Below, in pieces: positions 8,328 through 26,877 of a stretch of DNA of 64,000 bases. The position numbers and the translations under genes were made by a program. Position 1 is the stretch's first letter. Every line of letters begins with the position of its first letter. Source of the stretch: Streptomyces peucetius (GTDB lineage: Bacteria; Actinomycetota; Actinomycetes; Streptomycetales; Streptomycetaceae); assembly GCF_025854275.1 (NCBI RefSeq), contig NZ_CP107567.1, positions 2,542,001 through 2,606,000 of the forward strand. Reading direction: 5' to 3'. A model generated the notes under the pieces. It made no database searches, was not told the DNA's origin, and saw only the letters and a list, made by a program, of their open reading frames with translations.

Positions 8328-8671
8328 GGCCGGCGCTCCTGTTGCCGGCCGCGGGTTGCCCGGACCCCGCGGGACCGGGTGCCCTGCCGGGTGCTCCGCC
8401 GTCCGCTGCTCCGCAGCCTGTCCTGCCACGCTCTGCCTCGCCTCTGTCACAAGGCCGAATGTATGCCAGCACCCTCACCGCATGCGCGCCTGTTCCGTTC
8501 GCTGGACAGCGGACGCGACCCACCGGACCAGCTTGCAATCCACTCGAACCGGACAGCCGCTACTGTGCTGGATGGGCGGTGGCCCCGGCCCCGCAGCGGC
8601 CCGTGCACGCGTCGGCCCCCGCCTGCGAGTCCGGTTCCCACACGAGTTCCCACACGAGACGGGGCACAGCT
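8328..8671. other. divergent intergenic region proB / glycosyltransferase
   Basis: 344 bases between two divergent genes. It must hold promoters for both, but I cannot assign -10/-35 boxes with confidence. A possible TACTGT -10 element lies at 8561-8566. The left 120 bases stay open in the proB frame (see proB). Confidence 0.4.
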
Positions 8672-10747
8672 GTGTCGGTCAAAGTGAGCGTCGTCATCCC
8701 GGTTTACAACCCCGGGAAATACATCGACCCCTGCATCGACTCCTTGCTCGGCCAGACCCTTCCCGCACAGGACTTCGAGGTGCTGTTCGTCGACGACGGG
8801 TCCACCGACGACACGCCGGAGCGCCTCGACGCACTGGCCGCACGTCACCCACACTTCCGGGTGATCCACATCCCGAACTCCGGCTGGCCCGGCAAGCCAC
8901 GGAACATCGGGGTCGCCGAGGCGCGGGGCGAGTACGTCCAGTTCCTCGACCAGGACGACCACCTCGGCACGGACGCACTGCGCCGCCTCTACGCCATGGG
9001 GCACCGCAACGGCTCGGACATCGTCATCGGCAAGGTGGCCAGCAACTTCCGCGGCGTGCCCCACGGAGTCTTCCGTACGAACCGCGAGAAGTGCACGCTG
9101 CGCAACGCTCCGCTGTACGACAGCCTCACGCCGCACAAGATGTTCCGCACCGAGTTCCTGCGCGAGCACGGCATCGCCTATCCCGAGGGCAAGCGCCGGC
9201 TCGAGGACCAGCTGTACATGATGAAGGCGTACTTCCCCGCCGAGGTCGTCTCGATCCTCGGCACGTACACCTGCTACCACTACTCGAAGCGTGACGACGG
9301 GAAGAACGCGGGGTCGGCCAAGCTCGTCCCCGCGGGCTACTACGCGAACCTCCGCGAGGTTCTCGACGTCGTGGTCGCCAACACCGAGCCGGGCCCCTTC
9401 CGGGACCGGGTGCTGCGCCGCTTCTACCGCGTGGAGATGCTGGGACGCCTCAGTGAACCGGCGGTGCTGAAGTACGACGCCGACTACCTGCGCGAGATGG
9501 TGGACGCCGTGCGGCCCCTCGCCCTGGAGTTCATGGGCGACTCCGTGCACGACGGGATGGGTCCGCTGCTGCGCATGCGGTCGACCCTGCTCCGCGACGG
9601 CGACGGGGAAGGCCTCGTCCGCCTCGCGCGCCTCGCCTCCTCCATCAAGGGAGCCGTCCGGCTGGAGGACCTGGCGTGGGAGGCCGGGGGCGACCGGATC
9701 GAGGTCCGTCTCGCCGCGCGGTTCGTGCACGGCGAACAGCGAGTTCCGCTCAAGCTGCTGCGGCGCGACGGACGGCTGTACCTGCACCCGGACGTCACCG
9801 TCGGCTTCGTGCCCGCAGGTGCGCTCGTCGAGATCACCGACGACCTCGAAGGGTTCAGGGCCGAACTGGCGTTGCGCGACCGTGAGAAGGCGGTCGAGTG
9901 GTCCTGCCCGACGCGACTCGAGACGCGGGTCGAGGAGCTGGACGAGGAGGGCGAGACATGCGAGCTCGTGCTCCGTGGCACGGGCCGGCTGGTACCCGAG
10001 AGCGGAGGCAAGGGCTACAGCGGCCTCCCGCGTGGCTTCTGGGACGCCTGGGTCTCGGTCCGCGGCCTCGGCCTCGTGCGAAAGGTGCGGCTGGGCCACG
10101 ACCGGGCGGAGCACGTCGACGGCATGATGCTGCCCGCGCTGGTGTCCTCACCGCCCCGCCCGGTGATCCCCTACTTCACCAACCCGCACAGCAATCTCAC
10201 CCTCGATGTCGCTCGCCGCGGGAAGAAGGTCGGCCCGCACCTCGAAGGGCGTCCCGTACTGCGCATGCCGGGACGGAAACCCCAGCTGCGGCTGGATCTG
10301 GTCACCACCACCGCCACCGGTCCGGCCGCGGTGGAGCTCGTCCTGAGCAAGTTGTCCGAGGCCACTGATCCGGAGGAGGTCGCCGAGACGTCGGTGGTGC
10401 ACTCGTGCGCGAGCACCCTGCGCCCCGCGCAGAGCCGTGCGCATCTGGAGGTGCCGGCACGGATGGAGGGCGCTCCTGCGGGCACCTGGCAGCTCGGGGT
10501 GCGGCTCGACGGTGACAAGGCCCGCGCACTGCAGCTGTGCACTGCCGACGTGGACGACACCGGCCGTGTCCGACTGGACGACGAACTCCCCGTGCCGGAC
10601 CACCAGCTGATGCGCAAGCTCGCCTCGGCACGCCGCAGAGCAAGGCTGCGGCGTGCCGTACGCGCCGTCGTGGGCCCGGTCGTCCGGCGCCTGCCGCCCG
10701 CCGGGCGCAAGAAGCTGCGCCGGCTGGCGTCACGTGTCCTCGGCTGA
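8672..10747 (+). CDS. TarS-like GT2 glycosyltransferase with C-terminal beta domains
   Basis: A 691-aa enzyme probably adding a sugar to a teichoic-acid-like polymer. The N-terminal 320 residues form a GT-A fold: KVSVVIPVYNPGKYI, FVDDGSTDDTPERLD, SGWPGKPRNIGVAEARG, the metal-binding LDQDD and the catalytic-base type motif RRLEDQLYMMKAY. The block HGVFRTNREK...DSLTPHKMFRTEF strongly resembles S. aureus TarS. The rest holds about 350 residues of beta-rich domains with PYFTNPHSNLTLDV, shared with the minus-strand paralogue at 11401-13404, and a basic tail. The start is GTG 8672 directly before the conserved domain; its ribosome site is weak. It is the only plus-strand gene of the island. The donor sugar is unknown; dTDP-rhamnose made next door is one candidate. 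Confidence 0.85.
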   Translation: MSVKVSVVIPVYNPGKYIDPCIDSLLGQTLPAQDFEVLFVDDGSTDDTPERLDALAARHPHFRVIHIPNSGWPGKPRNIGVAEARGEYVQFLDQDDHLGTDALRRLYAMGHRNGSDIVIGKVASNFRGVPHGVFRTNREKCTLRNAPLYDSLTPHKMFRTEFLREHGIAYPEGKRRLEDQLYMMKAYFPAEVVSILGTYTCYHYSKRDDGKNAGSAKLVPAGYYANLREVLDVVVANTEPGPFRDRVLRRFYRVEMLGRLSEPAVLKYDADYLREMVDAVRPLALEFMGDSVHDGMGPLLRMRSTLLRDGDGEGLVRLARLASSIKGAVRLEDLAWEAGGDRIEVRLAARFVHGEQRVPLKLLRRDGRLYLHPDVTVGFVPAGALVEITDDLEGFRAELALRDREKAVEWSCPTRLETRVEELDEEGETCELVLRGTGRLVPESGGKGYSGLPRGFWDAWVSVRGLGLVRKVRLGHDRAEHVDGMMLPALVSSPPRPVIPYFTNPHSNLTLDVARRGKKVGPHLEGRPVLRMPGRKPQLRLDLVTTTATGPAAVELVLSKLSEATDPEEVAETSVVHSCASTLRPAQSRAHLEVPARMEGAPAGTWQLGVRLDGDKARALQLCTADVDDTGRVRLDDELPVPDHQLMRKLASARRRARLRRAVRAVVGPVVRRLPPAGRKKLRRLASRVLG

Positions 10748-10772
10748 GGCGCCCGCTTCGCCGGTCCGCTGA

Positions 10773-11369
10773 TCAGCGGGTGCGCAGCTGCTCGCGGAAG
10801 GAGACGCAGTCCGCATAGGAGGGCAGCAGGCCCTGCCGCTCGGCCTCCGCCAGTGACGGAGCCTGCTCGTCCTTCGGCGAGAGCAGCGGCTGGACGTCGG
10901 CCGGCCAGGCGATGCCGAGATCCGGATCGAGCGGGTGGATCCCGTGCTCGCGTTCGGGTGCGTAGCCCTCTGAGCACAGGTAGACGACGGTGGCATCGTC
11001 GGTGAGAGCCAGGAAAGCGTGGCCGAGGCCCTCGGACAGATAGACGGCGTGGTGCTTCTCGTCGTCCAGCCGGACGATCTCCCACTGCTTGTAGGTGGGG
11101 GAGCCGGTGCGGATGTCGACGATGACGTCCAGCACGGCGCCGCGTACGCACTTCACGTACTTGGCCTGGCTCGGCGGCACGTCGGCGAAGTGGATGCCGC
11201 GCAGGGTGCCGCGCCGGGAGACGGAGCAGTTGGCCTGGACGAGGCTGAGGTCCTGGCCGGTGGCCTCGCGGAAGTCGTTGCCCCGGAACCACTCGTGGAA
11301 GCTGCCCCGATCGTCGGGGAACACCTTCGGCTCGTGCACCCAGGCGCCTTCGATGGACAGAGGTCGCAT
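10773..11369 (-). CDS. rmlC: dTDP-4-dehydrorhamnose 3,5-epimerase-like protein (RmlC family)
   Basis: A 198-aa cupin epimerase. RmlC landmarks present are FPDDRGSFHEWF, the catalytic-His block GTLRGIHF, KYVKCVRGAVLDVIVDIRTG, GLGHAFLAL, and YAPEREHGIHPLDPDLGIAW with the catalytic Tyr. It would convert dTDP-4-keto-6-deoxyglucose to the 4-keto-rhamnose form, completing the Rml pathway with rmlA, rmlB and rmlD at 14.4-17.4 kb. Start ATG 11367-11369, with GGAAAG eight bases upstream. It sits downstream of the TarS-like gene on the same strand, away from the other rml genes. Some RmlC relatives epimerise only one carbon in deoxysugar pathways, so the exact product is not certain. Confidence 0.85.
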   Translation of the reverse strand: MRPLSIEGAWVHEPKVFPDDRGSFHEWFRGNDFREATGQDLSLVQANCSVSRRGTLRGIHFADVPPSQAKYVKCVRGAVLDVIVDIRTGSPTYKQWEIVRLDDEKHHAVYLSEGLGHAFLALTDDATVVYLCSEGYAPEREHGIHPLDPDLGIAWPADVQPLLSPKDEQAPSLAEAERQGLLPSYADCVSFREQLRTR

Positions 11370-11400
11370 GTTTGTCGCTTTCCGTTCTTGCTCGCGTTGG

Positions 11401-13404: not shown

Positions 13405-13505
13405 GCAGAAGCTCCCAATGACCTCACAAAGCTCCGGCATCCTGCTTTGCGGGAGCATGAATGGGACAGACTACCTGCCCCGCGAAGACCCGTTCTCTAT
13501 GGGCG

Positions 13506-13536
13506 CAGGCAGCCGCCGGACCGCGGCGGCTGCCTG
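13506..13536 (-). terminator. hairpin terminator after the methyltransferase gene
   Basis: Perfect 12-bp GC-rich stem (13506-13517 with 13525-13536) and a 7-base loop, 18 bases past the stop of the 13554-14348 gene. There is no T-run. Confidence 0.55.
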
Positions 13537-13553
13537 GAGAGCGGCTAGATCGG

Positions 13554-14348
13554 CTAAGAGGCCGAGCCGGGGATCCGGGCGCGCAGCCCGGACAAGGCGG
13601 ACCTGGGCCGGCGGAGATTCCGGGCACGCACCAGGTCGGACCAGAAGGACGCCTCGAGGAACGCCTCGGGCTGCACCGCCTTCTTGCGGACCAGGACCTC
13701 CTCGGGGACGTCCTGGGGGTCGGGGACGACGTACTCCTTGATGATGTCGTCGTACGACCGCTTGAGCACGGTGTTCTCCGGGTCCGCGCCGAAGATCACG
13801 ACGACACCGGTGGGCTGGGTGTCCACCTCGACCACCACGAGGTCGGGGCGGTACCGGCGCAGCACCGTCGCGACCTTGTAGACGTCACCGGTCCAGGCAC
13901 CGGTGTGCCGGTCACGGGCTGCCTCGTCGACGTTGCGAGGCAGCATGTCGTCGAGAACGATCACGCTCGACCAGCGGGAATACTCCTCGACGTTCATGAA
14001 ATCGCGCAGCGCGAACTCGAAAAGATGCATGCCGTCGATGAACGCCAGCTCGAGCTTGGGATCGGCGCCCATCAGGTTGAACGGATCCTTGCGGGCGAGC
14101 GCGCGGAACGGATTGCGGCCGTTGCGCAGGTGCAGCAGGGGATCCCGGCGCGCGAAGAAGTCGTCACTCGTGGCCCTGACGAGGTGAACGTCACAGCTGA
14201 GTTCCGTGACGACCCGGAATGCCGGGTCGACCGCGACGGAGGGAACTCGGGAGAGGGTCAGGCTGCGTCCGTCGTTGACCCCGATCTCCAGGTAGTTCCG
14301 GGGCTTGTAGACGCGGTGCAGCTGACGCAGAAAACCGTGGCGGTCCAC
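13554..14348 (-). CDS. class I SAM-dependent methyltransferase
   Basis: A 264-aa product. The SAM-binding motif YLEIGVNDGRSL is at residues 19-30, followed by VAVDPAFRV (motif II) and LELAFIDGMHLFEFALRDF (motif IV region), then VIVLDDMLPRN. This is the pattern of small sugar- or polymer-modifying class I methyltransferases. The start is GTG 14346-14348. It lies inside the wall-polymer island, 33 bases beyond the end of rmlD, with a strong palindrome in between. Likely target is a sugar residue of the polymer (for example O-methylation), inferred from context only. Confidence 0.75.
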   Translation of the reverse strand: MDRHGFLRQLHRVYKPRNYLEIGVNDGRSLTLSRVPSVAVDPAFRVVTELSCDVHLVRATSDDFFARRDPLLHLRNGRNPFRALARKDPFNLMGADPKLELAFIDGMHLFEFALRDFMNVEEYSRWSSVIVLDDMLPRNVDEAARDRHTGAWTGDVYKVATVLRRYRPDLVVVEVDTQPTGVVVIFGADPENTVLKRSYDDIIKEYVVPDPQDVPEEVLVRKKAVQPEAFLEASFWSDLVRARNLRRPRSALSGLRARIPGSAS

Positions 14349-14360
14349 TTCGGGGTTGCC

Positions 14361-14397
14361 CTTCGCTGGGAATCAACTTGATTGATTCCCAGCGAAG
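14361..14397 (-). terminator. perfect 16-bp inverted repeat between rmlD and the methyltransferase
   Basis: CTTCGCTGGGAATCAA pairs perfectly with its complement at 14382-14397 around a 5-base loop. It starts 34 bases after the rmlD stop and ends just before the methyltransferase GTG, so it may end or attenuate rml transcription. It has no T-tract. It is less GC-rich than the other hairpins here, and a protein-binding operator is also possible. Confidence 0.6.
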
Positions 14398-14430
14398 TTA
14401 GCCGGTACGTGGCCTGCCGGTAAACATCTA

Positions 14431-15336
14431 CTAGCGGGTAATGTCGGGCGTGTCGCCCCCGCGCTCCGCCGCGACCAGTGAGGGGAACGCCTCTGCGAGC
14501 GCCTCGCGCCAGTCGCGGATGGGTTCGATGCCCGTGTCCCGCCATCCCTCGTGGCCCAGCACGCTGTACGAGGGCCGGGGTGCGGGCCGGACGAAGGCCG
14601 CGCTGGTCGTCGGGCGCACCCGCTCGGGGTCCGCGCCCAGCAGCCGGAAGATCTCCCGGGTGAACCCGAACCAGGTCGTCTCACCACTGCTGGTGCCGTG
14701 GTGGACGCCCGCCTTGACGGTGCCCGCCAGCGCGCCCCGGCCGAGCCGGACCAGCCGGTCGGCGAGATCGGCGGTCCAGGTGGGCTGGCCCCGCTGGTCG
14801 TCAACGACGTCGAGGGTGTCCTTGACGGCTTCCAGCTTGATCATGGTGCGGACGAAGTTGCCACCGCCCGCGCCGTACAGCCACGCCGTGCGGACCACGT
14901 GGCCCGTGTCCGGGAGCACGTCCAGCACGGCCTGCTCGCCCGCCAGCTTGGTGCGCCCGTAGGCGCTGCGCGGGCCGGTGGGGGCCTCCTCGGCGTAGGG
15001 CTCGGTCCCGTCGCCGGCGAAGACGTAGTCCGTGGAGACGTGGAGCAGTACCGCCCCTGCCTCCTTGCAGGCCTCGGCGAGCACCCGGGGGCCGGTGCCG
15101 TTGACCGCGAGGGCCGCTTCCTCCTGGCTCTCCGCGCCGTCGACATCCGTCCAAGCGGCGCAGTTGACGACGGCGACCGGCCGGTGCGCGGCCATGGCCG
15201 CGCGGACCGACTCCGGGTCGGTGATGTCCAGGTCGGCCCGGCCGGCGCCGACGGCCTCGATGCCGTCGGCCGCCAGCCGCTCCAGGACGTCAGGGGCCAG
15301 CATGCCGCCGGCACCGGTCACGAGCCATACGCTCAC
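14431..15336 (-). CDS. rmlD: dTDP-4-dehydrorhamnose reductase RmlD
   Basis: Last step to dTDP-L-rhamnose. The 301-aa SDR has the NAD(P) motif TGAGGMLAPDV at the N-terminus, VVNCAAWTDVDGAE, STDYVFAGD and the YGRTK catalytic Tyr/Lys pair, all typical of RmlD. GTG 15334-15336 overlaps the rmlB stop by four bases (GTGA), showing translational coupling; an upstream in-frame start at 15390 would lie within rmlB and lacks similarity. Third gene of the rmlA-rmlB-rmlD run. Confidence 0.94.
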   Translation of the reverse strand: MSVWLVTGAGGMLAPDVLERLAADGIEAVGAGRADLDITDPESVRAAMAAHRPVAVVNCAAWTDVDGAESQEEAALAVNGTGPRVLAEACKEAGAVLLHVSTDYVFAGDGTEPYAEEAPTGPRSAYGRTKLAGEQAVLDVLPDTGHVVRTAWLYGAGGGNFVRTMIKLEAVKDTLDVVDDQRGQPTWTADLADRLVRLGRGALAGTVKAGVHHGTSSGETTWFGFTREIFRLLGADPERVRPTTSAAFVRPAPRPSYSVLGHEGWRDTGIEPIRDWREALAEAFPSLVAAERGGDTPDITR

Positions 15337-16319
15337 AGCGCCGCACGCTCCTTCAGGGGCTCCCACCAGGCGCGGTTGTCGCGGTACCACTGGACCGTCT
15401 CCGCGAGGCCCTTGGCGAAGTCCTTGCGGGGCTCGTAGCCGAGCTCCTCACGGATCTTGGCGCAGTCGACCGAGTAACGGCGGTCGTGGCCCTTGCGGTC
15501 GGTGACGTACTCGACGCTGGTGTCCCAGTCGGCCCCGCACGCCTCGAGCAGCAGCCCGGTGAGCTCCTTGTTGGAGAGCTCGGTGCCGCCGCCGATGTTG
15601 TAGACCTCGCCCGCGCGGCCCTTGGTGCGGACCAGCTCGATGCCCTGGACGTGGTCGTCGATGTGCAGCCAGTCGCGCACGTTGCCGCCGTCGCCGTACA
15701 GCGGGACCTTCTTGCCGTCCAGCAGGTTCGTGATGAACAGCGGGATGACCTTCTCGGGGAAGTGGTGGTGCCCGTAGTTGTTGGAGCACCGGGTCACCCG
15801 CACGTCCAGCCCGTGGGTGCGGTGGTACGACAGGGCGATCAGGTCGCTGGACGCCTTGGCGGAGGAGTACGGGGAGTTGGGCTCCAGCGGGTGCGTCTCA
15901 GGCCAGGAACCCTCGTCGATCGAGCCGTAGACCTCGTCGGTGGAGATGTGCACGAAGGTCTTGACGCCCGCGCGGTGCGCGGCGTCGATCAGCGTGTGGG
16001 TGCCCACCACGTTGGTACGGACGAACTCGGCGCCGCCGTCGATGGACCGGTCCACGTGCGACTCGGCCGCGAAGTGCACCACCTGGTCGTGCTCGGCCAT
16101 GAGCTTGCCGACGAGCTCGGGGTCGCAGATGTCGCCCTGCACGAAGGAGAAGCCGGGGTGGTCGCGGACCTCGTCGAGGTTGGCCGGGTTGCCCGCGTAC
16201 GTCAGCTTGTCCAGCACGGTGACGGCGATGTCACCGGGGCCCTCGGGGCCGAGGACGGTACGGACGTAGTGGGAGCCGATGAAGCCGGCGCCGCCGGTCA
16301 CCAGGATCTTCGTGGTCAT
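15333..16319 (-). CDS. rmlB: dTDP-glucose 4,6-dehydratase RmlB
   Basis: Second step of deoxysugar synthesis: dTDP-glucose to dTDP-4-keto-6-deoxyglucose. 328 aa, extended SDR with GGAGFIGSHYVR at the N-terminus, HFAAESHVDRSI, the STDEVYG signature and the YSSAKASSD catalytic Tyr/Lys. ATG 16317-16319 overlaps the rmlA stop by four bases (ATGA). It is part of a tightly coupled rmlA-rmlB-rmlD operon. Confidence 0.97.
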   Translation of the reverse strand: MTTKILVTGGAGFIGSHYVRTVLGPEGPGDIAVTVLDKLTYAGNPANLDEVRDHPGFSFVQGDICDPELVGKLMAEHDQVVHFAAESHVDRSIDGGAEFVRTNVVGTHTLIDAAHRAGVKTFVHISTDEVYGSIDEGSWPETHPLEPNSPYSSAKASSDLIALSYHRTHGLDVRVTRCSNNYGHHHFPEKVIPLFITNLLDGKKVPLYGDGGNVRDWLHIDDHVQGIELVRTKGRAGEVYNIGGGTELSNKELTGLLLEACGADWDTSVEYVTDRKGHDRRYSVDCAKIREELGYEPRKDFAKGLAETVQWYRDNRAWWEPLKERAAL

Positions 16320-17383
16320 GAGGAGATCTGCACCTTGCTGTGGTCACCGAGCACGAGCCGGTGGGCGGACGGGTTACGGGGAGCGGGCGTGACTTGGACG
16401 TCACGGCCGATGAGGGACGCCTCCACACGGCGCACGCCGGTGATCGAGGCGCCGCGCAGCACGATCGAGTACTCGATCTCGCTGTCCTCGATCCGGCAGC
16501 CCTCGGAGACCGAGGTGAACGGGCCGACGTAGGCGTCGCTGATCACGGTGCCGGCACCGATGATCGCAGGGCCGACGATCCGGCTGCCGCTGACCTTGGC
16601 ACCCGCCTCGATCCGCACCCGGCCGATGATCTCGCTGCTCTCGTCGACCGTACCCTCGGCGACGGGCTCGACGCCCTCCAGCACCGAGCGGTTGACCTCC
16701 AGCATGTCGGTGACGTTGCCGGTGTCCTTCCAGTAGCCCGCGATCGTCGTGGAGCGGACGTCGCGCTGCTGATCGATGAGCCACTGGATGGCGTGCGTGA
16801 TCTCCAGCTCACCGCGCCAGGACGGCTCGATGGAGCGCACCGCTTCGTGAATGGCTGGCGTGAACAGGTAGACGCCGACCAGGGCGAGGTCGCTCTTGGG
16901 CTGCTTCGGCTTCTCCTCGAGCCCTACGACGCGCCCGGTGCCGTCCAGCTCGGCGACACCGAAAGAGGTCGGGTTGGGGACCTTGGTGAGAAGGATCTGG
17001 GCGTCCGGGCGCTCGGCGCGGAACTCGTCGACCAGACCGCTGATGCCGCCGACGATGAAGTTGTCGCCGAGGTACATCACGAAGTCGTCGTCGCCGAGGA
17101 AGTCCTGGGCGATCAGCACGGCGTGCGCGAGACCGAGCGGCTGGTCCTGCGGGATGTACGTGACCTTGATCCCGAACTGGGAACCGTCGCCGACGGCTTC
17201 GCGGATCTCTTCGGCGGTGTCGCCCACGATCACGCCGACCTCGGTGATCCCGGCCTCGGCGATCGCCTCCAGGCCGTAGAACAGCACCGGCTTGTTTGCG
17301 ACGGGCACCAGCTGCTTGGCCGAGGTGTGCGTGATGGGGCGCAGACGTGTGCCCGCTCCACCGGAGAGTACGAGTGCCTTCAC
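16316..17383 (-). CDS. rmlA: glucose-1-phosphate thymidylyltransferase RmlA, long form
   Basis: Makes dTDP-glucose from dTTP and glucose-1-phosphate. The N-terminus MKALVLSGGAGTRLRP is the nucleotidyltransferase signature. At 355 aa it is the long form, with a C-terminal left-handed beta-helix-like part (GRVRIEAGAKVSGSRIVGPA), as in StrD-type enzymes of antibiotic deoxysugar pathways; classic short RmlA is about 290 aa. GTG 17381-17383 has GAGGA eight bases upstream. First gene of the rml operon, 70 bases downstream of the third glycosyltransferase. Confidence 0.95.
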   Translation of the reverse strand: MKALVLSGGAGTRLRPITHTSAKQLVPVANKPVLFYGLEAIAEAGITEVGVIVGDTAEEIREAVGDGSQFGIKVTYIPQDQPLGLAHAVLIAQDFLGDDDFVMYLGDNFIVGGISGLVDEFRAERPDAQILLTKVPNPTSFGVAELDGTGRVVGLEEKPKQPKSDLALVGVYLFTPAIHEAVRSIEPSWRGELEITHAIQWLIDQQRDVRSTTIAGYWKDTGNVTDMLEVNRSVLEGVEPVAEGTVDESSEIIGRVRIEAGAKVSGSRIVGPAIIGAGTVISDAYVGPFTSVSEGCRIEDSEIEYSIVLRGASITGVRRVEASLIGRDVQVTPAPRNPSAHRLVLGDHSKVQISS

Positions 17384-17453
17384 GATTTCTGTCCTCGATT
17401 GGGGGTTTGTTTCCCGAGCGGCTATCGCTCCGGCCGCTCGATTTTACCCAATG

Positions 17454-18686
17454 TCAAGCTTGCCCCGCCGACCGCGGGTGCCGTTCGGCGCGCAGCTTCC
17501 GCAGGCGTCTGCGCGACCAGCGCACGGTTCGCCGGACAAGTGAAGGAACAGTGTTCGGCGGCAGCACACGCACACTGCCCGACCAGTCCGGCACAGTGAT
17601 CTCGTAGGCGGACCGGGGGATGCCGCTCTGTTTGTTCCCGAAGTGCGGATACGCGAGGTACAGCCTGCGCCCGCGCCCCTCGGTCACCACCCTCGGGACC
17701 TGCTTGGTCCGGACGAATTCGAGCACGTCCACCAGGACGTCGAGGCGGCCCGCCGCCACACAGGCGAGCACCAGCCGCTCCCCGACCTTGATCCGGTCCG
17801 CGACGCTCTTGGACCAGTACTTGATGACGGGGGCCGCCAACTCCAGTTTGTGCCGCCGCACTTCCTCCGTCTCCTTGAGCAGCACGGGGCCGAACTGCTG
17901 CAGCAGCCCGACGGTGAACGGCCGCAGAAGCAGCTGGTCCCGCTTCGGTCCGGCCGGTTCGAGCCGGACGATCAGCTCCGTCAGTGCCGTGATGGCCGCG
18001 AAGCGGGGCGGATAACTGCCCCTGCGGGTCGCGTGCTTTCCGTCGTCCCTGGCGACGAGGTGGTAGCAGTCGTAGTCCGCCACGACCGAGACACCGTTCC
18101 CCTGCAGATACGCCTCCATGGTGAACAGCGCGTCCTCGCCGGTGGGGAGCGTCTCGTCGAATTCGAGACCCAGCCGGGACAGCAGCTCGCGCCGGAACAG
18201 CTTCTGCGCGCTCAGCGCGAAGATGACGCGCGAGGAGTACACGTCCACCCGCTCCTCGGTACGCGCGAACATCGAGGTCCCGACCTTGCGGCCGACCCCC
18301 TTGAGGCGGCCGAGGACCACGTCGGTGCCGGCCCGGTCCGCCATCGCGACCAGGCGTTCCAGCGCCTCGTCGCCGAAGAAGTCGTCGGCGTCGAGGAAGA
18401 AGACGAACCGGCCCCGGGCCAGCCGAAGACCTACGTTGCGGGGGCCGCTGGGACCGCCCGAGTTGGCCTGGTGGATCACCCGGGTCGGCACTTTCGAACG
18501 GGCGGCGAACTCGTCCAGGTACTCACCGGTTCCGTCGGTCGAGCCGTCGTCGACGGCGACGATCTCGATCCGGTCGGCGCCCAGGGTCTGGCTCTCCACC
18601 GACTCCAGGCAACGGATGAGATAGGGCATGGCTTCGTAAGCGCCGACCACGACGGTGACGTCGGGCACGAAAGGTTTGTCGTTCAT
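17454..18686 (-). CDS. TarS-like GT2 glycosyltransferase, short form
   Basis: A 410-aa enzyme with only the GT-A catalytic part of the TarS plan: VTVVVGAYEAMPYLIRCLES, VDDGSTDGTGEYLD, SGGPSGPRNVGLRLARG, the metal site LDADD, and LPTGEDALFTMEAYL in the catalytic-base position. The large C-terminal beta domains of the two other TarS-like proteins are missing; instead it ends in an Arg-rich tail. ATG 18684-18686 with GGAG six bases upstream was chosen. The frame stays open upstream through the C/G-tract at 18779-18860, where it would encode poly-Gly, which is not credible protein. Probable role is adding one of the sugars of the wall polymer. Confidence 0.85.
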   Translation of the reverse strand: MNDKPFVPDVTVVVGAYEAMPYLIRCLESVESQTLGADRIEIVAVDDGSTDGTGEYLDEFAARSKVPTRVIHQANSGGPSGPRNVGLRLARGRFVFFLDADDFFGDEALERLVAMADRAGTDVVLGRLKGVGRKVGTSMFARTEERVDVYSSRVIFALSAQKLFRRELLSRLGLEFDETLPTGEDALFTMEAYLQGNGVSVVADYDCYHLVARDDGKHATRRGSYPPRFAAITALTELIVRLEPAGPKRDQLLLRPFTVGLLQQFGPVLLKETEEVRRHKLELAAPVIKYWSKSVADRIKVGERLVLACVAAGRLDVLVDVLEFVRTKQVPRVVTEGRGRRLYLAYPHFGNKQSGIPRSAYEITVPDWSGSVRVLPPNTVPSLVRRTVRWSRRRLRKLRAERHPRSAGQA

Positions 18687-18778
18687 CGACTCCAAGACAA
18701 CCGGAGTCGTGCCCAGGTTGCCCGGAACGACACAACCCGTATGGATCTGTTCGCACATGCAGTTCGACCCGGCGGCCG

Positions 18779-18860
18779 CCCCCCCCCCCCCCCCCCGCCC
18801 CCCCGGCCCCCCCCCCCCCCCCCCGCCGCCCGCCCCCCCCCCCCCCCGGGGGCGCCCCCC
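18779..18860. repeat. extreme C-homopolymer tract upstream of the short TarS-like gene
   Basis: An almost pure C stretch on the plus strand. C-runs of 18 (18779-18796), 7 (18798-18804), 18 (18807-18824) and 15 (18833-18847) are broken by single or double Gs, then a G-rich and C-rich tail follows to 18860. It begins 93 bases upstream of the 18686 start codon and ends 22 bases after the previous gene. On the transcribed strand it would be four long G-runs. No other place in the window has anything similar. It may be an assembly artefact; see findings. Confidence 0.9.
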
Positions 18861-18882
18861 GCCGGGTCGGACGATTCTGCGG

Positions 18883-20961
18883 TCAGCCGCCCACGGGCGT
18901 GTCGTTGCGGCCGGGCGTCTGCTCCGTCTCGGCCATCCGCTTCTCGACACCCACGTTGCGGGCCTGCGACTTCGCGGCCAGGCTCTGCACAGCGGCGTCG
19001 AACTGCTCCATCGACGTCGGCTCGTCCGGCCCGAGCAGGTACTCCTTGAGCACGCGGCGCTCCTCGGCGAGGGCGTCCGCGGCGGGGTCGGCGACGGCGG
19101 CGAGCAGCTCGTCGAGCTCCTCCGCGCTGTTGGAGAGGATCACCGCGGCCCGTACCGCCGTGTTCTGCCGCTTGAACTCGTCCTCGCCGAGGCCGGCCGA
19201 GTCGGTGACCGCGTACGGCTTGCCGCTGGCGATGAAGTCCGACACGACACTGGAGATGTCGGAGACCATGGCGTCCGACTCGTTGAAGCAGTCGTACAGC
19301 CGCGGAGCCGGCCCGGTGATGACCTTGTGCTCCCACCAGCCGAAGGAACGCCAGTACGCCGTGTTCCACTCGTCCCGCAGCCGGGCCGTCTCCGCCTCGC
19401 GCGCCGGGTCCGGCAGCGAGTCACGGGAGACCTCCGCCTCGTCCCGGCCTTCTCCGGCGCCGCCGGACAGCTCCGCCAGCCGGGCCTCGATGCGCTGCAG
19501 CTCGGCAGCCGCCTCCGTCTGCTCCGCGAGGTGCGAGGAGGCTTCCTTCGCCCAGCGGGGTTCGGCGGCGCGCGCTGCCGCGGCCTTCTCGATCATCGCG
19601 ACGATCCGGTCGTGGGCGGCCTTGGCCTTGACGCTCCGGGTGCCGGTGAAGGGGTGGGGCTTGTAGACGACCCGCACCGGCTCCGGTGCCTCGAGGAGCT
19701 TCCTGACGATGTTCTCGCCCGCCAGCAGCAGGGAGGTGTTGCCGGGGTTGTCGTCCCAGCCCTCCCAGGTGGGCGCGTAGAGCACGGTCGGGATGGGGTT
19801 CCCGGTCCTCGAGTTGCCCGTCTTGATGGGGGCGAGCTGGGGGCGGCCCACCTCGACGATGTCCTCGCTGCGCACACCGACGTCGGCCAGCGCGTACCGG
19901 TCGCGTCCCGCGCGGCCGGCGGTCCACACCTCGTCGTAGGCCTTGCTGAACGGGTTGACGCTGGCGAGCTTGTCGCTGTCGCCGTGGCCGATGAAGACGT
20001 GCTTCATGGTCGGCACACGGAGCATGTGGATGTTCTTGCCGACGTTGGCGGCGTACAGCGCGACCCGCACGGAGGACAGGTCCAGGTTCATCAGATGCAC
20101 ACTGCCCGGCACGCACACCACCGGCACCGACGTCGGGCCGAGCTGGGGCACGATGTTGCGTTCACGCAGGAAGATGACCGGCCGGCCCTCGAGCTGGGAC
20201 ATCGTCTCCAGCCACATGTTGACCTGGTAGGCGGAGTCGGCCGAACCGGAGAAGTACATCATCACGGTCGGCTTGTAGTCGGTCAGCCATGCGTCGATGC
20301 CCTCGAGGACCTTTTCCGGCGGCGGCACCAGCTTGCTGGGCCGCAGATGCGGCATCAGCAGGAACACATACCCGACGGCGAGGGCGAGGGTGAGCCCCAG
20401 ACCCGCGTAGGCGAACCAGGGGGTGTCGGCCTCGATCGCGGCCAGCACACCCAGCAGGGCGAACACGTCCAGGTGGAGCATCTTCTCCGCGGGCCGGTCG
20501 AGCAGCCGCCGCGGAGGCGCGTCGGGGATGCGTACGTACCCCGAGAGATCGATGTTGCGGGTGACGACCGGCAGCTTGCGACGCAGCCGGAGCAGCATGA
20601 CCATCGCACCGTGCGGCGCCTGGAGGCCGTAGAAGGCCAGCAGACAGGCGACGGTCACATAGAAGACCATCTGGTCCGCGAGCCCCGTCCGGGCCATCAG
20701 CAGAACGAGCAGCAGCTGGCGCACCAGGAACCTGATCGACAGACCCGCGCGCACCTTGGCGAGACGATTGACCAGATAGCTGGAGCGCTGGTGCAGAAAC
20801 CGGTCGGACAGGTAGGTCACTGCCACGGCCACCGCGAAGAACCAGAGGTTGGGAATTATCGCGGCGAGCATGACGCATGGGAATCCCAGCACCAGAAGAA
20901 GTGCGGCTGCCAGCTCGGATCCGCTACCCACGCGAGCCAAGCGAATGGCTTTCGAAATCAC
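18883..20961 (-). CDS. membrane-anchored CDP-glycerol/ribitol glycerophosphotransferase (TagF/TarL family)
   Basis: A 692-aa putative teichoic-acid polymerase. Residues 1 to about 190 carry several hydrophobic helices (AAALLLVLGFPCVMLAAIIP and others), unusual for TagF. The Glyphos_transf domain follows: PTVLYAPTWEG, VYKPHPFTG with the catalytic-type His, then YDCFNESDAMVSDISSVVSD and DFIASGKPYAVTD near the end. Residues about 455-525 form a Glu/Ala-rich helical insert. GTG 20959-20961 was chosen (AGGAG upstream, conserved-looking MISKAIRLARV); the frame opens a little further to 21003. It lies downstream of the CDP-ribitol synthase, so ribitol phosphate is the likely unit. Confidence 0.85.
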   Translation of the reverse strand: MISKAIRLARVGSGSELAAALLLVLGFPCVMLAAIIPNLWFFAVAVAVTYLSDRFLHQRSSYLVNRLAKVRAGLSIRFLVRQLLLVLLMARTGLADQMVFYVTVACLLAFYGLQAPHGAMVMLLRLRRKLPVVTRNIDLSGYVRIPDAPPRRLLDRPAEKMLHLDVFALLGVLAAIEADTPWFAYAGLGLTLALAVGYVFLLMPHLRPSKLVPPPEKVLEGIDAWLTDYKPTVMMYFSGSADSAYQVNMWLETMSQLEGRPVIFLRERNIVPQLGPTSVPVVCVPGSVHLMNLDLSSVRVALYAANVGKNIHMLRVPTMKHVFIGHGDSDKLASVNPFSKAYDEVWTAGRAGRDRYALADVGVRSEDIVEVGRPQLAPIKTGNSRTGNPIPTVLYAPTWEGWDDNPGNTSLLLAGENIVRKLLEAPEPVRVVYKPHPFTGTRSVKAKAAHDRIVAMIEKAAAARAAEPRWAKEASSHLAEQTEAAAELQRIEARLAELSGGAGEGRDEAEVSRDSLPDPAREAETARLRDEWNTAYWRSFGWWEHKVITGPAPRLYDCFNESDAMVSDISSVVSDFIASGKPYAVTDSAGLGEDEFKRQNTAVRAAVILSNSAEELDELLAAVADPAADALAEERRVLKEYLLGPDEPTSMEQFDAAVQSLAAKSQARNVGVEKRMAETEQTPGRNDTPVGG

Positions 20962-21098
20962 GAAGCACCTGCTCCTGGGGGTACCGACGGTTTTGCCTTG
21001 CAAAGAAGATGTGAAGGCGAGGCTTCACGAACTCGGGCCTCCGCAGTGCGCGAAAGGCGGCAACTACAGAGGCCCAGAGAATTGATTGTCAGGAATTA

Positions 21099-22598
21099 TT
21101 ACACATCTTCCTGGCGGTCCAGCACGGAGGCCAGGGCCTGCTCGAAGCCGGACGCCTCGGAAGCCCCACGGGTGGGATCCTGCTGGCGGACGTCGATGAC
21201 GTGCCCGGTCAGCTCGGAGAGCAGCACGTCGAGCGAGGTCCGCGCGACAGCCTCCGACGACAGCAGGGAACCGGCCGGCTCGTCGCCGAACGCCTTGGTG
21301 CGCATGGGAGTCGCGGTGCGCTCCGGGTTCACGCAGTTCACCCGGATGCCGTCGGCGGCCCACTCGTCCGACAGTGCCTGGGTGAGATTCACCATCGCGG
21401 CCTTCGTGGAGGAGTACAGGCTGTACTCGGCGCGGCCGCGGGTGTAGCTGCTGGAGGTGTAGAGCAGCAGCTGCCCCTGGGTCTCCGCGAGGTACTTGTG
21501 CGACGCCCGGGCGATCTGAACGGGCGCCAGGTAATTGACGTTCAGCGCTTCCTGGATGGCCGCGTTGTCCGTCTCCGCGAGCTTTCCGATGCGCAGCACG
21601 CCCGCGGTGTTGATCACGTAGTCGATGCGGCCGCTCTCGGCGTACGCCGTGGAGAGGGCCTCGTCGACGTGCTCCGGGTTCTCGACGTGCGTGCCCGTGG
21701 TGGAACGGCCCAGCGCGTACACCTTGGCGCCGTAGGACTCGGCGAGCTTCGCGATGTCGGCGCCGATCCCGTAGGAGCCGCCGAAGACGACGAGGGTCTT
21801 GCCGGCGAGCAGTTCGCGGTAGGCGGCCGCGTCGGCCTGGCGCGGAGCCGCGGTGGAGGCCAGCTGGAAGAGCTTGTCCGCGATGAAGACGTCGACCGGC
21901 TGGGTGACCTTCATGTTGTACTCGTCGCCCGCGACGACGTAGATCGGCACGTCGGGCAGGTACTTCAGCACGACCGAGCAGTCGTCGGTGGCCTGGAAGT
22001 TCGGGTCGCCGGCGGCGACCTCGTACGCCCTGCGGATCGTGGACAGCTTGAACGCCTGGGGCGTCTGGCCGCGGCGCAGCCGGGAGCGGTCCGGGACGTC
22101 GGTGATGAACTCGCCGTCCTCGCCGTGCGTCCGGGTCACGATGATCGTGTCCGCGGAGGGGATGGCGACGTCGACGGCCTGGTAGCGGTCGAGCGCGTCG
22201 ACGCAGTCCTTGATGACCCGTTCGGAGAGCAGCGGGCGCACGGCGTCGTGGAACAGGACGTTGCGGTCCTCGCCCTCGGCCAGGCCCTCACCCAGTGCCG
22301 CGATGGCCCGCTCGGTGGTCTCGTTGCGCGTCGAGCCGCCCTCGATGACCTTGACGACCTTGGTCAGCCCGGCCTTGGCGACGATCTTCTCGACGTCCGG
22401 CACGTACCCGGGGGCCATCAGCACCATGACGTCGTCGATCGAGTCGGCCCGCTCGAAGATCGACAGTGTGTGCTCGATGACAGCCTTGCCTGCGATCTTC
22501 AGCAGCTGCTTGGGGATGGACAGACCCACGCGCTGACCGGTTCCACCGGCGAGCACGACTGCTGTGGTTCGGGGTTTGGCTATGTGCTGCACAGACAC
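21099..22598 (-). CDS. bifunctional CDP-ribitol synthase: cytidylyltransferase + ribulose-5-P reductase (TarI-TarJ type fusion)
   Basis: A 499-aa fusion. Residues 1 to about 245 are an IspD/TarI cytidylyltransferase (TAVVLAGGTGQRVGLSIPKQ, FHDAVRPLLSERVI, RRGQTPQAFKL). Residues about 260-499 are a short-chain dehydrogenase (TLVVFGGSYGIGADIAKL, VINTAGVLRIG, YSLYSSTKAAM with catalytic Tyr/Lys). The same order occurs in Haemophilus Bcs1/Acs1, which reduces ribulose-5-phosphate and makes CDP-ribitol; in S. aureus these are separate TarJ (a different dehydrogenase type) and TarI. GTG 22596-22598 has AAGGTAGG upstream. The AT-richer gap of 137 bases downstream separates it from the polymerase. Confidence 0.9.
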   Translation of the reverse strand: MSVQHIAKPRTTAVVLAGGTGQRVGLSIPKQLLKIAGKAVIEHTLSIFERADSIDDVMVLMAPGYVPDVEKIVAKAGLTKVVKVIEGGSTRNETTERAIAALGEGLAEGEDRNVLFHDAVRPLLSERVIKDCVDALDRYQAVDVAIPSADTIIVTRTHGEDGEFITDVPDRSRLRRGQTPQAFKLSTIRRAYEVAAGDPNFQATDDCSVVLKYLPDVPIYVVAGDEYNMKVTQPVDVFIADKLFQLASTAAPRQADAAAYRELLAGKTLVVFGGSYGIGADIAKLAESYGAKVYALGRSTTGTHVENPEHVDEALSTAYAESGRIDYVINTAGVLRIGKLAETDNAAIQEALNVNYLAPVQIARASHKYLAETQGQLLLYTSSSYTRGRAEYSLYSSTKAAMVNLTQALSDEWAADGIRVNCVNPERTATPMRTKAFGDEPAGSLLSSEAVARTSLDVLLSELTGHVIDVRQQDPTRGASEASGFEQALASVLDRQEDV

Positions 22599-22798
22599 AG
22601 ACGACCTACCTTGCGAGGGCTGGGGAACAAAACTGATGGTTGCACCCTCCGTTACCGAACCGCAAGGCGGGTGACGCCCGTGCAACCGCTCCGATAAACC
22701 TCCTGTTCACCGGTGATCAGGGGAATTGACCCGACCCGACGGCAACCCCGACGTGATCGACACCACACATCTGAGTGGCATGAATCACCCTGAGCGGG

Positions 22799-24829
22799 TC
22801 ATGGGAGGTCGACAACGTTCAGCGCCAGGTCGTTGGTGAGGGTGTAGTAGACCCGCACCCGCACCTTGGGCCGCGGTCTGCGCAGGAGCCGCTTGGCCAT
22901 GGCCCGCGCGAGACTCTCCGTCCGCCTCTTGGCGATGACGCTCTGCGGATAGACGAAGACGTCCTTCTTCTGCACCACATCGTCCAGCACCCGGCCCATT
23001 TTCACCGGCTTCTCATCCGGCGCGTAACGCACATAGGCGTCCCACACGTCGTGCGGGGTGGTCTGCGAGGCGGCGGGCACGGACGAGGAGAAGGTGAAAC
23101 GGAAACCCCTGGTGCCCCGCCGCTCACCGGTGAAGGTGATCTCGTCCTTCGGCCTGCCGCGGCGGCGCAGCACGAGCACCGGCGCACCGGAGGCAGCGGC
23201 CCGGCCGTGAAGGGTGCCGGCCAGGGTCACCCGCGTGCCGTCCACCTCGACGACGTCGGCCTCCGCGTGGACCGGCCGCGACCAGGCCCGCAGCATCAGG
23301 GCTCCGCCCTTGGCGGTGTCCTTGTACGGGATCAGGTTGCGGACGGTCTCGTCGGGCGCGAGCCGTCCGGCGACGCCGACAGCGCCGCGCTGGTCGACGG
23401 TCCGTGCGGTGACACGTCCGCGCACACCGGAGTCCACCAGCTCCACATAGGCGTTCCACAGCCCCTCCGCGAACGCCGCGTCGGCCGGGACCTTCACGCC
23501 CCCGGCGGCGTCGAAGTCGAAGGTCCGCGCACCGTCGGCGTCGTCGGTGCGCGTGCAAACCAGGCGCACACCGCCCCGGGCCCCCTTCGGCAGCGGGGCG
23601 GCGAGCGTGAGGCTGAGGGAGCCGTCCGGCTCGACCACGCAGTCCGCGGCGGGGTTGATCCCGGGGAGCTCCGTCCGTCGTGCGGCCTGCGCGGCGAGTT
23701 CGCCGAAGAGCGTCTCGTACTGCTTGGTGACGACCGCGGGATCGAACCGGCGGGCGTTGCGCACGGCTGCCGCGCCCATCCGTCTGCGCAGGTCCTCGTC
23801 CTCGATCAGCCGCAGCAGTGCGGCGGCGACGGCGTCCGTGTCGCCCACCGGCACCAGGATTCCGTCCTCGCCGTCGCGGATGATCTCGCGCGGCCCGTAG
23901 TCGCAGTCCGTGCTGACCATGGGCACGCCGCAGCGCATCGCCTCCACCACGGTCATACCGAAGGACTCGTGGCGTGAAGTGGACGCCGCGACGGCACCCT
24001 TGACCCACTCCGGCTCGATCGGCGAACGCGGACCCATGAGATAGGCGCTGTTGTAGAGGCCGAGTGCGTCGATCCGCGCCCGCAGCCTCTCCCGCTGGTC
24101 ACCGGAGCCGTAGATGCGCAGCACCCAGTCGGGGTGGACGGCGACGACCTTCGCGAACGCATCGAGGAGCACGTGGTACTGCTTCCCCGCGGCCAGCCGG
24201 CCGGCGGCGACGATCGTCCTGCCCGCCGTGTCGGACGGGGCGACGGGCGGCTCCGGGACGCTGTTCGGGATGGCGAGGACCCTGGTGGTCGGCAGCGGCG
24301 TCTTCTCCCGCCACACCGCCGCGTCGCCCTCGGAGACGGTGACGAACGCGTCGACGGCGTCGAGGTGTTCGTACATCTCCTCGCGCAGCGCCGCACTGTG
24401 GTGATGGTGCGTCATGTGCTCCTGCCCGATCCGTACGGCGGTGGGAGCGGCGAACCGGGCGACGTACGCGGTGAGACCGGGCCGGGTTCCGATGACGACG
24501 TCCGCGTCGCAGACGGCGTAGTGCTCGCGGACCCGTTCGTCGGTGAGCCTGCTGTACTCCTTGTAGCGCGCCTCGGCGCGGGGGAAGACCGTGGCGGGCT
24601 CGCTGAAACGGGGGTCCCCGCGGTCGCTCGCCGGGGAGTCCTTGCGGATGTCGAGCAGCGGTACGACGGTGATGCGCGGGTCGATGGCGAAGGCCGCCTC
24701 GTCGCGGTGGCGGAAGACGGACACGATCTCGACCTCGTGGCGGTTCGCCAGCTCCTCGGCCAGATTCAGCGTCGTGCGGATGGTGCCGCCGATGCCGTAA
24801 ATGGTGTGGATGAGGAAAGAGATCTTCAT
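22799..24829 (-). CDS. GT4-family glycosyltransferase with C-terminal beta domain
   Basis: A 676-aa product. Residues 1 to about 385 are a GT-B retaining glycosyltransferase: MKISFLIHTIYGIGGTIRTT at the N-terminus, IVAAGRLAAGKQYHVLLDAF, and the nucleotide-sugar EX7E site in RHESFGMTVVEAMRCG. Residues about 400-676 are beta-rich, ending VRVYYTLTNDLALNVVDLP, which resembles the PHSNLTLDV-type blocks in the two long TarS-like proteins, so all three may share a polymer-binding or oligomerisation domain. ATG 24827-24829 has GGAG five bases upstream. It is the first gene of the minus-strand island and is probably cotranscribed with the CDP-ribitol synthase 200 bases downstream. Confidence 0.85.
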   Translation of the reverse strand: MKISFLIHTIYGIGGTIRTTLNLAEELANRHEVEIVSVFRHRDEAAFAIDPRITVVPLLDIRKDSPASDRGDPRFSEPATVFPRAEARYKEYSRLTDERVREHYAVCDADVVIGTRPGLTAYVARFAAPTAVRIGQEHMTHHHHSAALREEMYEHLDAVDAFVTVSEGDAAVWREKTPLPTTRVLAIPNSVPEPPVAPSDTAGRTIVAAGRLAAGKQYHVLLDAFAKVVAVHPDWVLRIYGSGDQRERLRARIDALGLYNSAYLMGPRSPIEPEWVKGAVAASTSRHESFGMTVVEAMRCGVPMVSTDCDYGPREIIRDGEDGILVPVGDTDAVAAALLRLIEDEDLRRRMGAAAVRNARRFDPAVVTKQYETLFGELAAQAARRTELPGINPAADCVVEPDGSLSLTLAAPLPKGARGGVRLVCTRTDDADGARTFDFDAAGGVKVPADAAFAEGLWNAYVELVDSGVRGRVTARTVDQRGAVGVAGRLAPDETVRNLIPYKDTAKGGALMLRAWSRPVHAEADVVEVDGTRVTLAGTLHGRAAASGAPVLVLRRRGRPKDEITFTGERRGTRGFRFTFSSSVPAASQTTPHDVWDAYVRYAPDEKPVKMGRVLDDVVQKKDVFVYPQSVIAKRRTESLARAMAKRLLRRPRPKVRVRVYYTLTNDLALNVVDLP

Positions 24830-24973
24830 CTGCGCTCCGTTCGGTTCCCCTCCGGGACGAAGGGGACGTGCATCACATCGATTTTGCCCTTCCGGTCTTG
24901 ATTTTCACCATTGATGCCCTTTCGGCCCGCCTTCACCCGGGGAGACGGAGAAGCGACGCAGAGGGTTGCGTAC

Positions 24974-25008
24974 GAAATCGGCCCGGAGACGGTCTCCGGG
25001 CCGATTTC
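24974..25008 (-). terminator. terminator of obg
   Basis: Perfect 16-bp stem GAAATCGGCCCGGAGA (24974-24989) with its complement at 24993-25008 and a 3-base loop, 45 bases past the obg stop. It separates the core obg operon from the wall-polymer island. Confidence 0.8.
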
Positions 25009-25052
25009 AGGGGAACGACCGTATGAATCCGGCCATGGTCCCGTACGGAAGG

Positions 25053-26489: not shown

Positions 26490-26553
26490 GGAAGTGCCTC
26501 CAGTGATGACGGGGGTCGTACGTACGTAAATGTCTGTCTCTCAACACACGAAA

Positions 26554-26590: not shown

Positions 26591-26608
26591 CCTCGGATGC
26601 GTTTCCGG

Positions 26609-26863: not shown

Positions 26864-26877
26864 CTCTCCTCAGTCCC

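What the first reader, a model, noticed from the sequence alone, without database searches (positions are those of the whole stretch)
8672..24829. Ribitol-type teichoic-acid island with a full dTDP-rhamnose set and three TarS-like transferases
Between proB and obg lie a fused cytidylyltransferase-SDR (CDP-ribitol synthase), a TagF/TarL-type polymerase, three TarS-like GT2 enzymes, a GT4 enzyme, a methyltransferase and rmlA, rmlB, rmlC, rmlD. The set predicts a ribitol-phosphate polymer decorated with several sugars, possibly including methylated or rhamnosyl groups. The LCP-like gene at the left edge could attach it. No linkage-unit (TagO/TagA) or export (TagG/TagH) genes are here, so those must be elsewhere.
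Basis: partly seen in the sequence, partly recalled or inferred. Interest (0 to 1): 0.72.

Follow-up and report, generated by a model that had tools for sequence, protein, structure and literature searches.

The report
Streptomyces wall-polymer locus with rhamnose module
This stretch of a Streptomyces chromosome holds genes for a known kind of ribitol-based cell-wall polymer, together with a transferable set of genes that probably decorates it with rhamnose, perhaps methylated.

Summary
In detail: the named genes are there, at the stated coordinates. The locus kind is known: in S. griseus a TarIJ and a TagF gene beside L21/L27 belong to an NMR-proven ribitol wall teichoic acid locus with variable decoration genes, whose product is an umbrella-toxin receptor (PMC13274773). 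Added here: (1) in 392 Streptomyces genomes the CDP-ribitol synthase (CRS) is in 178 of 178 with the TagF-like protein of this class (TarLm class A), 15 of 130 with only weaker TarLm matches, 0 of 84 with none, so TarLm is very likely the CDP-ribitol user; (2) rmlABCD, a methyltransferase (MT) and a TarS-like GT2 behave as one module: 21 of 65 intervals carry rmlABCD, 20 of these 21 also MT, and 44 carry none of it; copies lie elsewhere in other genomes, and MT is in 85 of 392 genomes, all with class-A TarLm; (3) this strain combines two rml-linked TarS types that none of the 65 intervals combines. Best reading: RmlT-like rhamnosylation of polyribitol phosphate, possibly O-methylated. No sugar or enzyme was tested. 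Export and linkage-unit candidates lie elsewhere in the genome. New variant of a known kind.

The parts
7206..8450 (-). proB (AA_kinase + PUA), left boundary
8672..10747 (+). tarS1: GT2 with TarS linker and a ~360-aa C-terminal region; rhamnosyltransferase candidate of the tarS1 clade
   Evidence: Pfam; PDB TarS-type 5tz8 155.6 bits, 8bz4 145.9; tree
10773..11369 (-). rmlC, dTDP-4-dehydrorhamnose 3,5-epimerase; the only RmlC family member found in the genome
11401..13404 (-). tarS2: GT2 with TarS linker; best rhamnosyltransferase candidate; rmlC lies directly behind tarS2 in the 5 members of its clade
   Evidence: Pfam; PDB 8bz4 150.9 bits against 131.9 for 5tze
13554..14348 (-). MT: class I SAM methyltransferase (Methyltransf_24-like), invariant IDGMH and DD motifs; proposed O-methylation of the rhamnose
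14431..15336 (-). rmlD, dTDP-4-dehydrorhamnose reductase
15333..16319 (-). rmlB, dTDP-glucose 4,6-dehydratase
16316..17383 (-). rmlA (long form), glucose-1-phosphate thymidylyltransferase
17454..18686 (-). GT2c: short TarS-like GT2, in 57 of 65 fully seen intervals, with or without rml
18883..20961 (-). TarLm: six predicted N-terminal helices plus a GT-B-like region with a remote Glyphos_transf (PF04464) match; proposed polyribitol-phosphate polymerase
21099..22598 (-). CRS: IspD/TarI-type cytidylyltransferase fused to an SDR, proposed CDP-ribitol synthase (TarIJ type)
22799..24829 (-). GT4 (catalytic half also matches TarM) with a ~300-aa C-terminal extension; accessory, in 17 of 65 intervals
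25053..26489 (-). obg, right boundary

Best explanation
This is the Streptomyces ribitol wall-teichoic-acid locus carrying a rhamnose-type decoration module. CRS reduces ribulose-5-phosphate and makes CDP-ribitol; TarLm polymerises it as ribitol phosphate on a lipid-linked primer whose linkage unit and ABC export are made elsewhere in the genome; GT2c and the GT4 add sugars also used by strains without rml; RmlABCD make dTDP-L-rhamnose, tarS2 and/or tarS1 transfer rhamnose to the ribitol, and MT O-methylates that sugar or its precursor. The rml-MT-TarS set is a self-contained module gained, lost and exchanged between strains, so it would change the surface type seen by umbrella-toxin lectins and perhaps phages. 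Shown here: gene content, near all-or-none linkage, co-occurrence, mosaicism. Inferred: every enzymatic step, the sugar, the methyl target and the receptor role.
For: A TarIJ-TagF pair beside L21/L27 marks the S. griseus locus, where ribitol WTA is shown by NMR. CRS N-half matches a ribitol-5-P cytidylyltransferase best. In 392 Streptomyces genomes CRS is in 178 of 178 with class-A TarLm, 15 of 130 with weaker matches only, 0 of 84 with none. Of 65 fully visible obg-proB intervals (homologues above 55% identity counted), 21 hold rmlABCD; 20 of these 21 also hold MT and 20 hold tarS1 or tarS2; 44 hold none of these. MT is in 85 of 392 genomes, all 85 with class-A TarLm. In 25 fetched MT neighbourhoods (of 91 matches) a TarS-like GT2 is within 5.5 kb in 24 and rmlABD in 20. 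The genome has one RmlC, here. tarS2's closest solved relative is 8bz4 (Listeria RmlT by recall), 150.9 bits against 131.9 for the TarS entry, while GT2c prefers TarS, 142.9 against 91.8. Precedent: Listeria rmlT and rmlACBD are required for WTA rhamnose (passages). Mosaicism against S. xantholiticus. Export and linkage candidates.
Against: No wall chemistry was available for this strain. TarLm is only remotely TagF-like: profile comparison with this genome's own three TagF-domain proteins gives 1.1% probability, no credible PDB sequence hit, a modest model with pLDDT 67 and no Foldseek hit at E <= 0.001. Those three TagF-domain proteins, next to an ABC exporter 0.4 Mb away, could be the polymerases. 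tarS1 scores TarS above 8bz4, so it may transfer another sugar. Methyl groups are known on other sugars of Streptomyces wall polymers (3-O-methylglucose in S. antibioticus WTA; a methyl group in the S. coelicolor polymer), so MT need not act on rhamnose. Co-occurrence figures are not corrected for relatedness, and class A is defined by a printed E-value of 0; on an obg tree the cassette needs only 5 changes, 3 forced. rmlABD are missing near MT in 5 of 25 loci (L102, L104, L109, L118, L121), and L104 has MT alone.
Confidence: 0.7

Rival explanations
1. The rml-MT-TarS genes build a separate rhamnose-containing chain (teichuronic-like) attached to one ribitol of the teichoic acid, as UtrC is proposed to start in S. 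griseus, rather than single side sugars.
For: In S. griseus and S. antibioticus a TarS-like enzyme is needed for a teichuronic-like chain on ribitol; three GT2 and a GT4 are enough for a chain.
Against: No uronic-acid or amino-sugar pathway gene was recognised among the interval's scanned genes. Among homologues of the window's own transferases, nearly all of the 24 module loci with one show a single TarS-like gene beside MT, which suits a one-sugar decoration; other kinds of transferase would not have been seen there.
Confidence: 0.2
2. TarLm is not the ribitol-phosphate polymerase but a membrane accessory or a primase; polymerisation is done by the TagF-type enzymes of the 2.975-2.989 Mb cluster.
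For: Three strong PF04464 proteins beside an ABC-2 permease and ATPase; TarLm match is remote.
Against: CRS tracks class-A TarLm, 178 of 178, and falls to 15 of 130 when only weaker matches are present; all 27 aligned TarLm proteins match PF04464, and no other family matches more than one. Whether the distal cluster tracks CRS as well was not tested.
Confidence: 0.2
3. The rml genes feed a natural product or another glycan, and their place next to the wall locus is incidental.
For: dTDP-rhamnose is used in many Streptomyces secondary metabolites (recalled).
Against: No secondary-metabolite enzyme recognised in the interval; the same set with a TarS-like transferase recurs away from this locus; MT only in class-A TarLm genomes.
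Confidence: 0.08

Closest known systems
Streptomyces griseus / S. antibioticus WTA-TUA locus (SGR_4956 TarIJ, SGR_4957 TagF, utr genes; PMC13274773)
   Same: TarIJ and TagF genes near L21/L27; ribitol-phosphate backbone by NMR; TarS-like decoration enzymes; variable accessory genes
   Different: Utr genes make amino-uronic sugars; rhamnose, dTDP and methyltransferase are not words of that paper's main text; here the accessory set is rmlABCD-MT-TarS inside obg-proB. Its supplement and figures were not seen
Listeria monocytogenes rmlT-rmlACBD (PMC4441387)
   Same: dTDP-rhamnose genes with a GT-A transferase, required for rhamnose on a teichoic acid; absent from some serogroups
   Different: Its five-gene operon is rmlT and rmlACBD, without methyltransferase or CDP-ribitol/polymerase genes; similarity of tarS1/tarS2 is seen only through 8bz4, recalled to be RmlT
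S. aureus TarS / TarP / TarM
   Same: GT2 plus TarS linker domain (tarS1, tarS2, GT2c) and a GT4 whose catalytic half matches TarM among others
   Different: Donor sugars unknown here; two of the GT2 enzymes are tied to rml genes
TagF/TarL (PF04464)
   Same: Remote PF04464 match in 27 of 27 aligned TarLm proteins; GT-B-like model
   Different: Six N-terminal predicted helices; profile comparison with this genome's TagF-domain proteins not significant
S. coelicolor SCO2578-SCO2592 / PdtA, PDP polymer (PMC7831098, PMC3937824)
   Same: Wall-polymer genes, probably the same chromosomal region (by position, not aligned)
   Different: PdtA was tied to poly(diglycosyl phosphate), which has no ribitol

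Membership tests
Streptomyces ribitol WTA locus (S. griseus type) | TarIJ (CRS) and TagF-like (TarLm) genes together next to obg and L21/L27 | tested here: met
   equivalence to SGR_4956/4957 is by description and position, the S. griseus proteins were not aligned; L27 and L21 of the window were placed from ORF positions, not scanned
Streptomyces ribitol WTA locus (S. griseus type) | 1,5-linked ribitol phosphate in the wall | not testable with these tools
   needs NMR
Listeria RmlT-type WTA rhamnosylation | complete rmlABCD next to a GT-A (GT2) transferase related to WTA transferases | tested here: met
   gene content only:
Listeria RmlT-type WTA rhamnosylation | WTA rhamnose lost on deletion of the transferase or of rml | not testable with these tools
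   needs mutants
TarS family GT2 | GT2 domain followed by TarS linker (PF22181) | tested here: met
   127.3 and 121.6 bits for tarS2 and tarS1, 35.7 for GT2c, cut-off 27
TarS family GT2 | transfer of GlcNAc to polyribitol phosphate | not testable with these tools
   donor unknown
TagF/TarL polymerases (PF04464) | full-length Glyphos_transf domain | tested here: inconclusive
   match over the cut-off but best stretch only residues 392-458; hhalign 1.1%; TagF listed by Foldseek at ranks 22 and 24 with E about 0.06
TagF/TarL polymerases (PF04464) | CDP-polyol phosphotransferase activity | not testable with these tools
   indirect only: CRS in 178 of 178 class-A genomes
Bifunctional CDP-ribitol synthase (Bcs1/TarIJ type) | ribitol-5-P cytidylyltransferase fused to an SDR reductase | tested here: met
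   domains; nearest models and structures; activity not tested
CDP-alcohol phosphotransferases (TarLm N-domain, considered) | signature D-x2-D-G-x2-A-R-x8-9-G-x3-D-x3-D (recalled) | tested here: not met

The most novel reading that the evidence does not exclude
TarLm is the first recognised example of a separate family of membrane-embedded polyribitol-phosphate polymerases: a degenerate CDP-alcohol-phosphotransferase-like membrane domain fused to a divergent GT-B domain, co-inherited with CDP-ribitol synthase; and onto its product a self-contained, transferable 'O-methylrhamnose' module is docked, making the obg locus a serotype-switch locus that lets Streptomyces change its receptor for umbrella toxins and phages.
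Probability: 0.25. Interest if true: 0.62.

Novelty: new variant of a known kind. Interest (0 to 1): 0.42.

Why it matters
Streptomyces wall polymers have recently been shown to be receptors of umbrella toxins, and their diversity is proposed to be driven by that conflict (PMC13274773). A discrete rml-MT-TarS module, present in some strains, absent in others and found at several chromosomal places, gives a named, testable unit of that diversity, and predicts a rhamnose (perhaps O-methylrhamnose) glycoform of ribitol teichoic acid that can be checked by NMR and by binding of UmbA lectins. The tight CRS-TarLm pairing also points to the enzyme that should make polyribitol phosphate in the genus.

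Tried and rejected
Sequence search for solved relatives of TarLm gave nothing or only chance-level ribosomal proteins at E 0.055 and worse; profile comparison with this genome's TagF-domain proteins was not significant. The structure model was modest; Foldseek gave no hit at E <= 0.001; the VIA list showed many GT-B folds (TagF not among its top 50) and a helical-bundle match that I treat as a lead only. No solved relative of MT by sequence (one chance-level match); its structure job had not finished at the last poll. A shared C-terminal domain between the GT4 and the TarS-like enzymes could not be established (21% and 5% probability). Chance or a misread frame was rejected by codon-position G+C and conservation. 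Paper searches aimed at rhamnose teichoic acid in Streptomyces or actinomycetes (10 of 10 listed; 12 of 29; 12 of 34) showed no such work by title and abstract start; the library lacks most subscription journals, where older wall-chemistry papers are. That PDB 8bz4 is Listeria RmlT, and 5tz8/5tze TarS, is recalled; one search did not confirm the first. Interval counts come from the 80 relatives nearest to this TarLm, so they are not a genus frequency; 15 of the 80 were dropped because obg or proB was not visible, and homologues at 55% identity or less were not counted. The 25 MT neighbourhoods (of 91 matches) were taken mainly in listing order, not at random. Alignment A1 used 26 of the 80 loci plus the window.
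Full report
1. What is there. The interval 8672-24829 holds eleven genes between proB (7206-8450-) and obg (25053-26489-). rmlA, rmlB, rmlC and rmlD each pass an NCBIfam equivalog cut-off. CRS is an IspD-type cytidylyltransferase fused to a short-chain dehydrogenase. In the PDB its first half scores 125.5 bits with 4jis and 117.5 with 6xhp, both named ribitol-5-phosphate cytidylyltransferase; 3f1c (119.3) and 2vsh (107.5) bear the name of the MEP enzyme, as do 1vgz and 1vgw (96) and 2xwl (81). NCBIfam's ribitol model is passed (167 against 166 bits); its ispD model scores 169.8 but stays under its cut-off of 181.3. tarS1 and tarS2 carry strong TarS linker domains, GT2c a weak one. MT matches Methyltransf_24 in 15 of 15 aligned members at E <= 0.01, the window copy just under the family's cut-off, with invariant IDGMH and DD motifs. 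That such motifs are typical of metal-dependent sugar O-methyltransferases is recalled, not tested.

2. The rest of the genome. The genome is a single 8.05 Mb contig. RmlC has one member in it, here. IspD-family members are three: one at 3.64 Mb (presumably the MEP enzyme), CRS, and a weak one at 3.19 Mb. The TarS linker has four hits, three here and a weak one at 2.985 Mb. A second cluster at 2.975-2.989 Mb has three proteins with strong TagF domains, at least two of them also with GT2 domains, near an ABC-2 permease and an ABC ATPase, a good candidate for export. TagO-type (PF00953) has two hits, at 5.41 and 1.99 Mb, one of them presumably MraY; TagA/WecG-type has two, at 7.94 and 5.57 Mb.

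3. Known locus. PMC13274773 (sections 8, 9 and 45 read whole, passages elsewhere) names TarIJ (SGR_4956) and TagF (SGR_4957) near L21/L27 (SGR_4953, 4954) in S. griseus, reports ribitol-phosphate teichoic acid by NMR in S. griseus and S. antibioticus, and shows that TarS-like UtrC is needed for a teichuronic-like chain on ribitol that is an umbrella-toxin receptor. It reports variable accessory genes in these loci. Rhamnose, dTDP and methyltransferase are not words of its main text; it does report some 3-O-methylated glucose in S. antibioticus. PMC3937824 and PMC7831098 (passages) describe S. coelicolor SCO2578 and SCO2589-SCO2592 as wall-polymer genes and tie PdtA (SCO2578) to a different polymer, so the left-edge LytR_C gene (window up to 1004) cannot be assigned to the ribitol polymer by position.

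4. Core and accessory. One scan of named genomes with TarLm confirmed 316 relatives; the 80 kept are all titled Streptomyces. In 65 of these 80 both obg and proB are visible (homologues above 55% identity counted). CRS and TarLm are in 65 of 65 (TarLm by selection), GT2c in 57, GT4 in 17. rmlABCD are in 21; MT is in 20 of these 21 and tarS1 or tarS2 in 20 of 21; the other 44 have no MT, no tarS1/tarS2 and no full rml set. None of the 65 has both tarS1 and tarS2, as this window does. On an obg tree of 66 rows the cassette needs 5 changes, 3 of them forced by well-supported branches, against 18.7 for shuffled labels: it follows lineage in part.

5. Co-occurrence. Across 392 Streptomyces genomes TarLm is found in 308: 178 with a printed E of 0 (class A) and 130 only with weaker matches, 1e-146 to 3e-236 (class B). 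CRS is in 178 of 178 class A, 15 of 130 class B, 0 of 84 with neither. MT is in 85 of 392, all of them class A (Fisher 4e-36, not corrected for relatedness). In a phylum sample TarLm reached E <= 1e-10 in 20 of 396 genomes, 10 of them Streptomyces.

6. A module that moves. The 85 genomes hold 91 MT matches. 24 score above 500 bits; by my reading, 21 of these 24 lie within about 11 kb of TarLm. I fetched 25 of the 91 neighbourhoods, 5 from the strong and 20 from the weaker group: a TarS-like GT2 lies within 5.5 kb of MT in 24 of 25, rmlABD in 20, rmlC at least in part in 20. In L100, L101 and L103 the module sits on the far side of obg from CRS and TarLm. Of the 20 weaker-group stretches 19 show neither CRS nor TarLm, and L107 only a 43% TarLm paralogue; in G009, for example, MT is at 9.05 Mb and TarLm at 3.29 Mb. 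rmlABD are missing in L102, L104, L109, L118 and L121, and L104 is a lone MT. The steadiest partner of MT is thus a TarS-like transferase, then the rml genes.

7. Mosaicism of this strain. Against its nearest relative in the set, S. xantholiticus (L004), identity is 93% over 13581-27505, then breaks on both sides: tarS2-rmlC has no close colinear partner (64% at best), tarS1 is 75%, and beyond 27505 L004 has two further TarS-like genes. The window's rmlC is 88% and 87% identical to the rmlC next to tarS2 in L037 and L025 but 77% to L004's. In a quick tree of 113 GT2 rows tarS2 groups with four others (L025, L037, L064, L069), all with rmlC directly behind; tarS1 is in a clade of 23 and GT2c in a clade of 69.

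8. Which enzyme moves rhamnose. tarS2 is closest to PDB 8bz4 (150.9 bits; 5tze 131.9). I recall 8bz4 to be Listeria RmlT and 5tz8/5tze to be TarS. tarS1 scores 5tz8 155.6 and 8bz4 145.9; GT2c scores 5tze 142.9 and 8bz4 91.8. PMC4441387 (passages) shows that rmlACBD and rmlT are needed for rhamnose on Listeria teichoic acid. I therefore favour tarS2, then tarS1, as rhamnosyltransferase.

10. Verdict. The locus kind was described in a 2025 paper; the rhamnose module, its close linkage with a methyltransferase and its several places in the chromosome did not show up in the papers I could search (listings only). New variant of a known kind.

Noticed in passing
window 43042-49333: A RodA/FtsW, PBP and MreB set lies about 17 kb from obg, so cell-wall synthesis genes neighbour the wall-polymer locus.
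   Followed up: partly
window 37030-39350: An MFS transporter and an enolase-superfamily (MR_MLE_C) gene stand on the + strand among mostly minus-strand genes.
   Followed up: no
L085 7650-11135: A 1161-aa protein joins a GT2 domain, a weak TarS linker and a full TagF domain; two further TagF-domain proteins lie nearby.
   Followed up: partly
L058, L059, L070, L071, L083 (starting about 12.3-14.1 kb): A second, inverted TarLm paralogue (42-44% identical) lies before proB in several species; such copies score like class B (G067, 670 bits), a class mostly without CRS, and may use another polyol.
   Followed up: partly
L004 1-3484: Two extra TarS-like genes lie on the far side of obg in S. xantholiticus where this window's similarity to it ends.
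   Followed up: partly
L121 (G358): MT beside a TarS-like gene without rml genes, in a genome that has another MT copy near TarLm.
   Followed up: no
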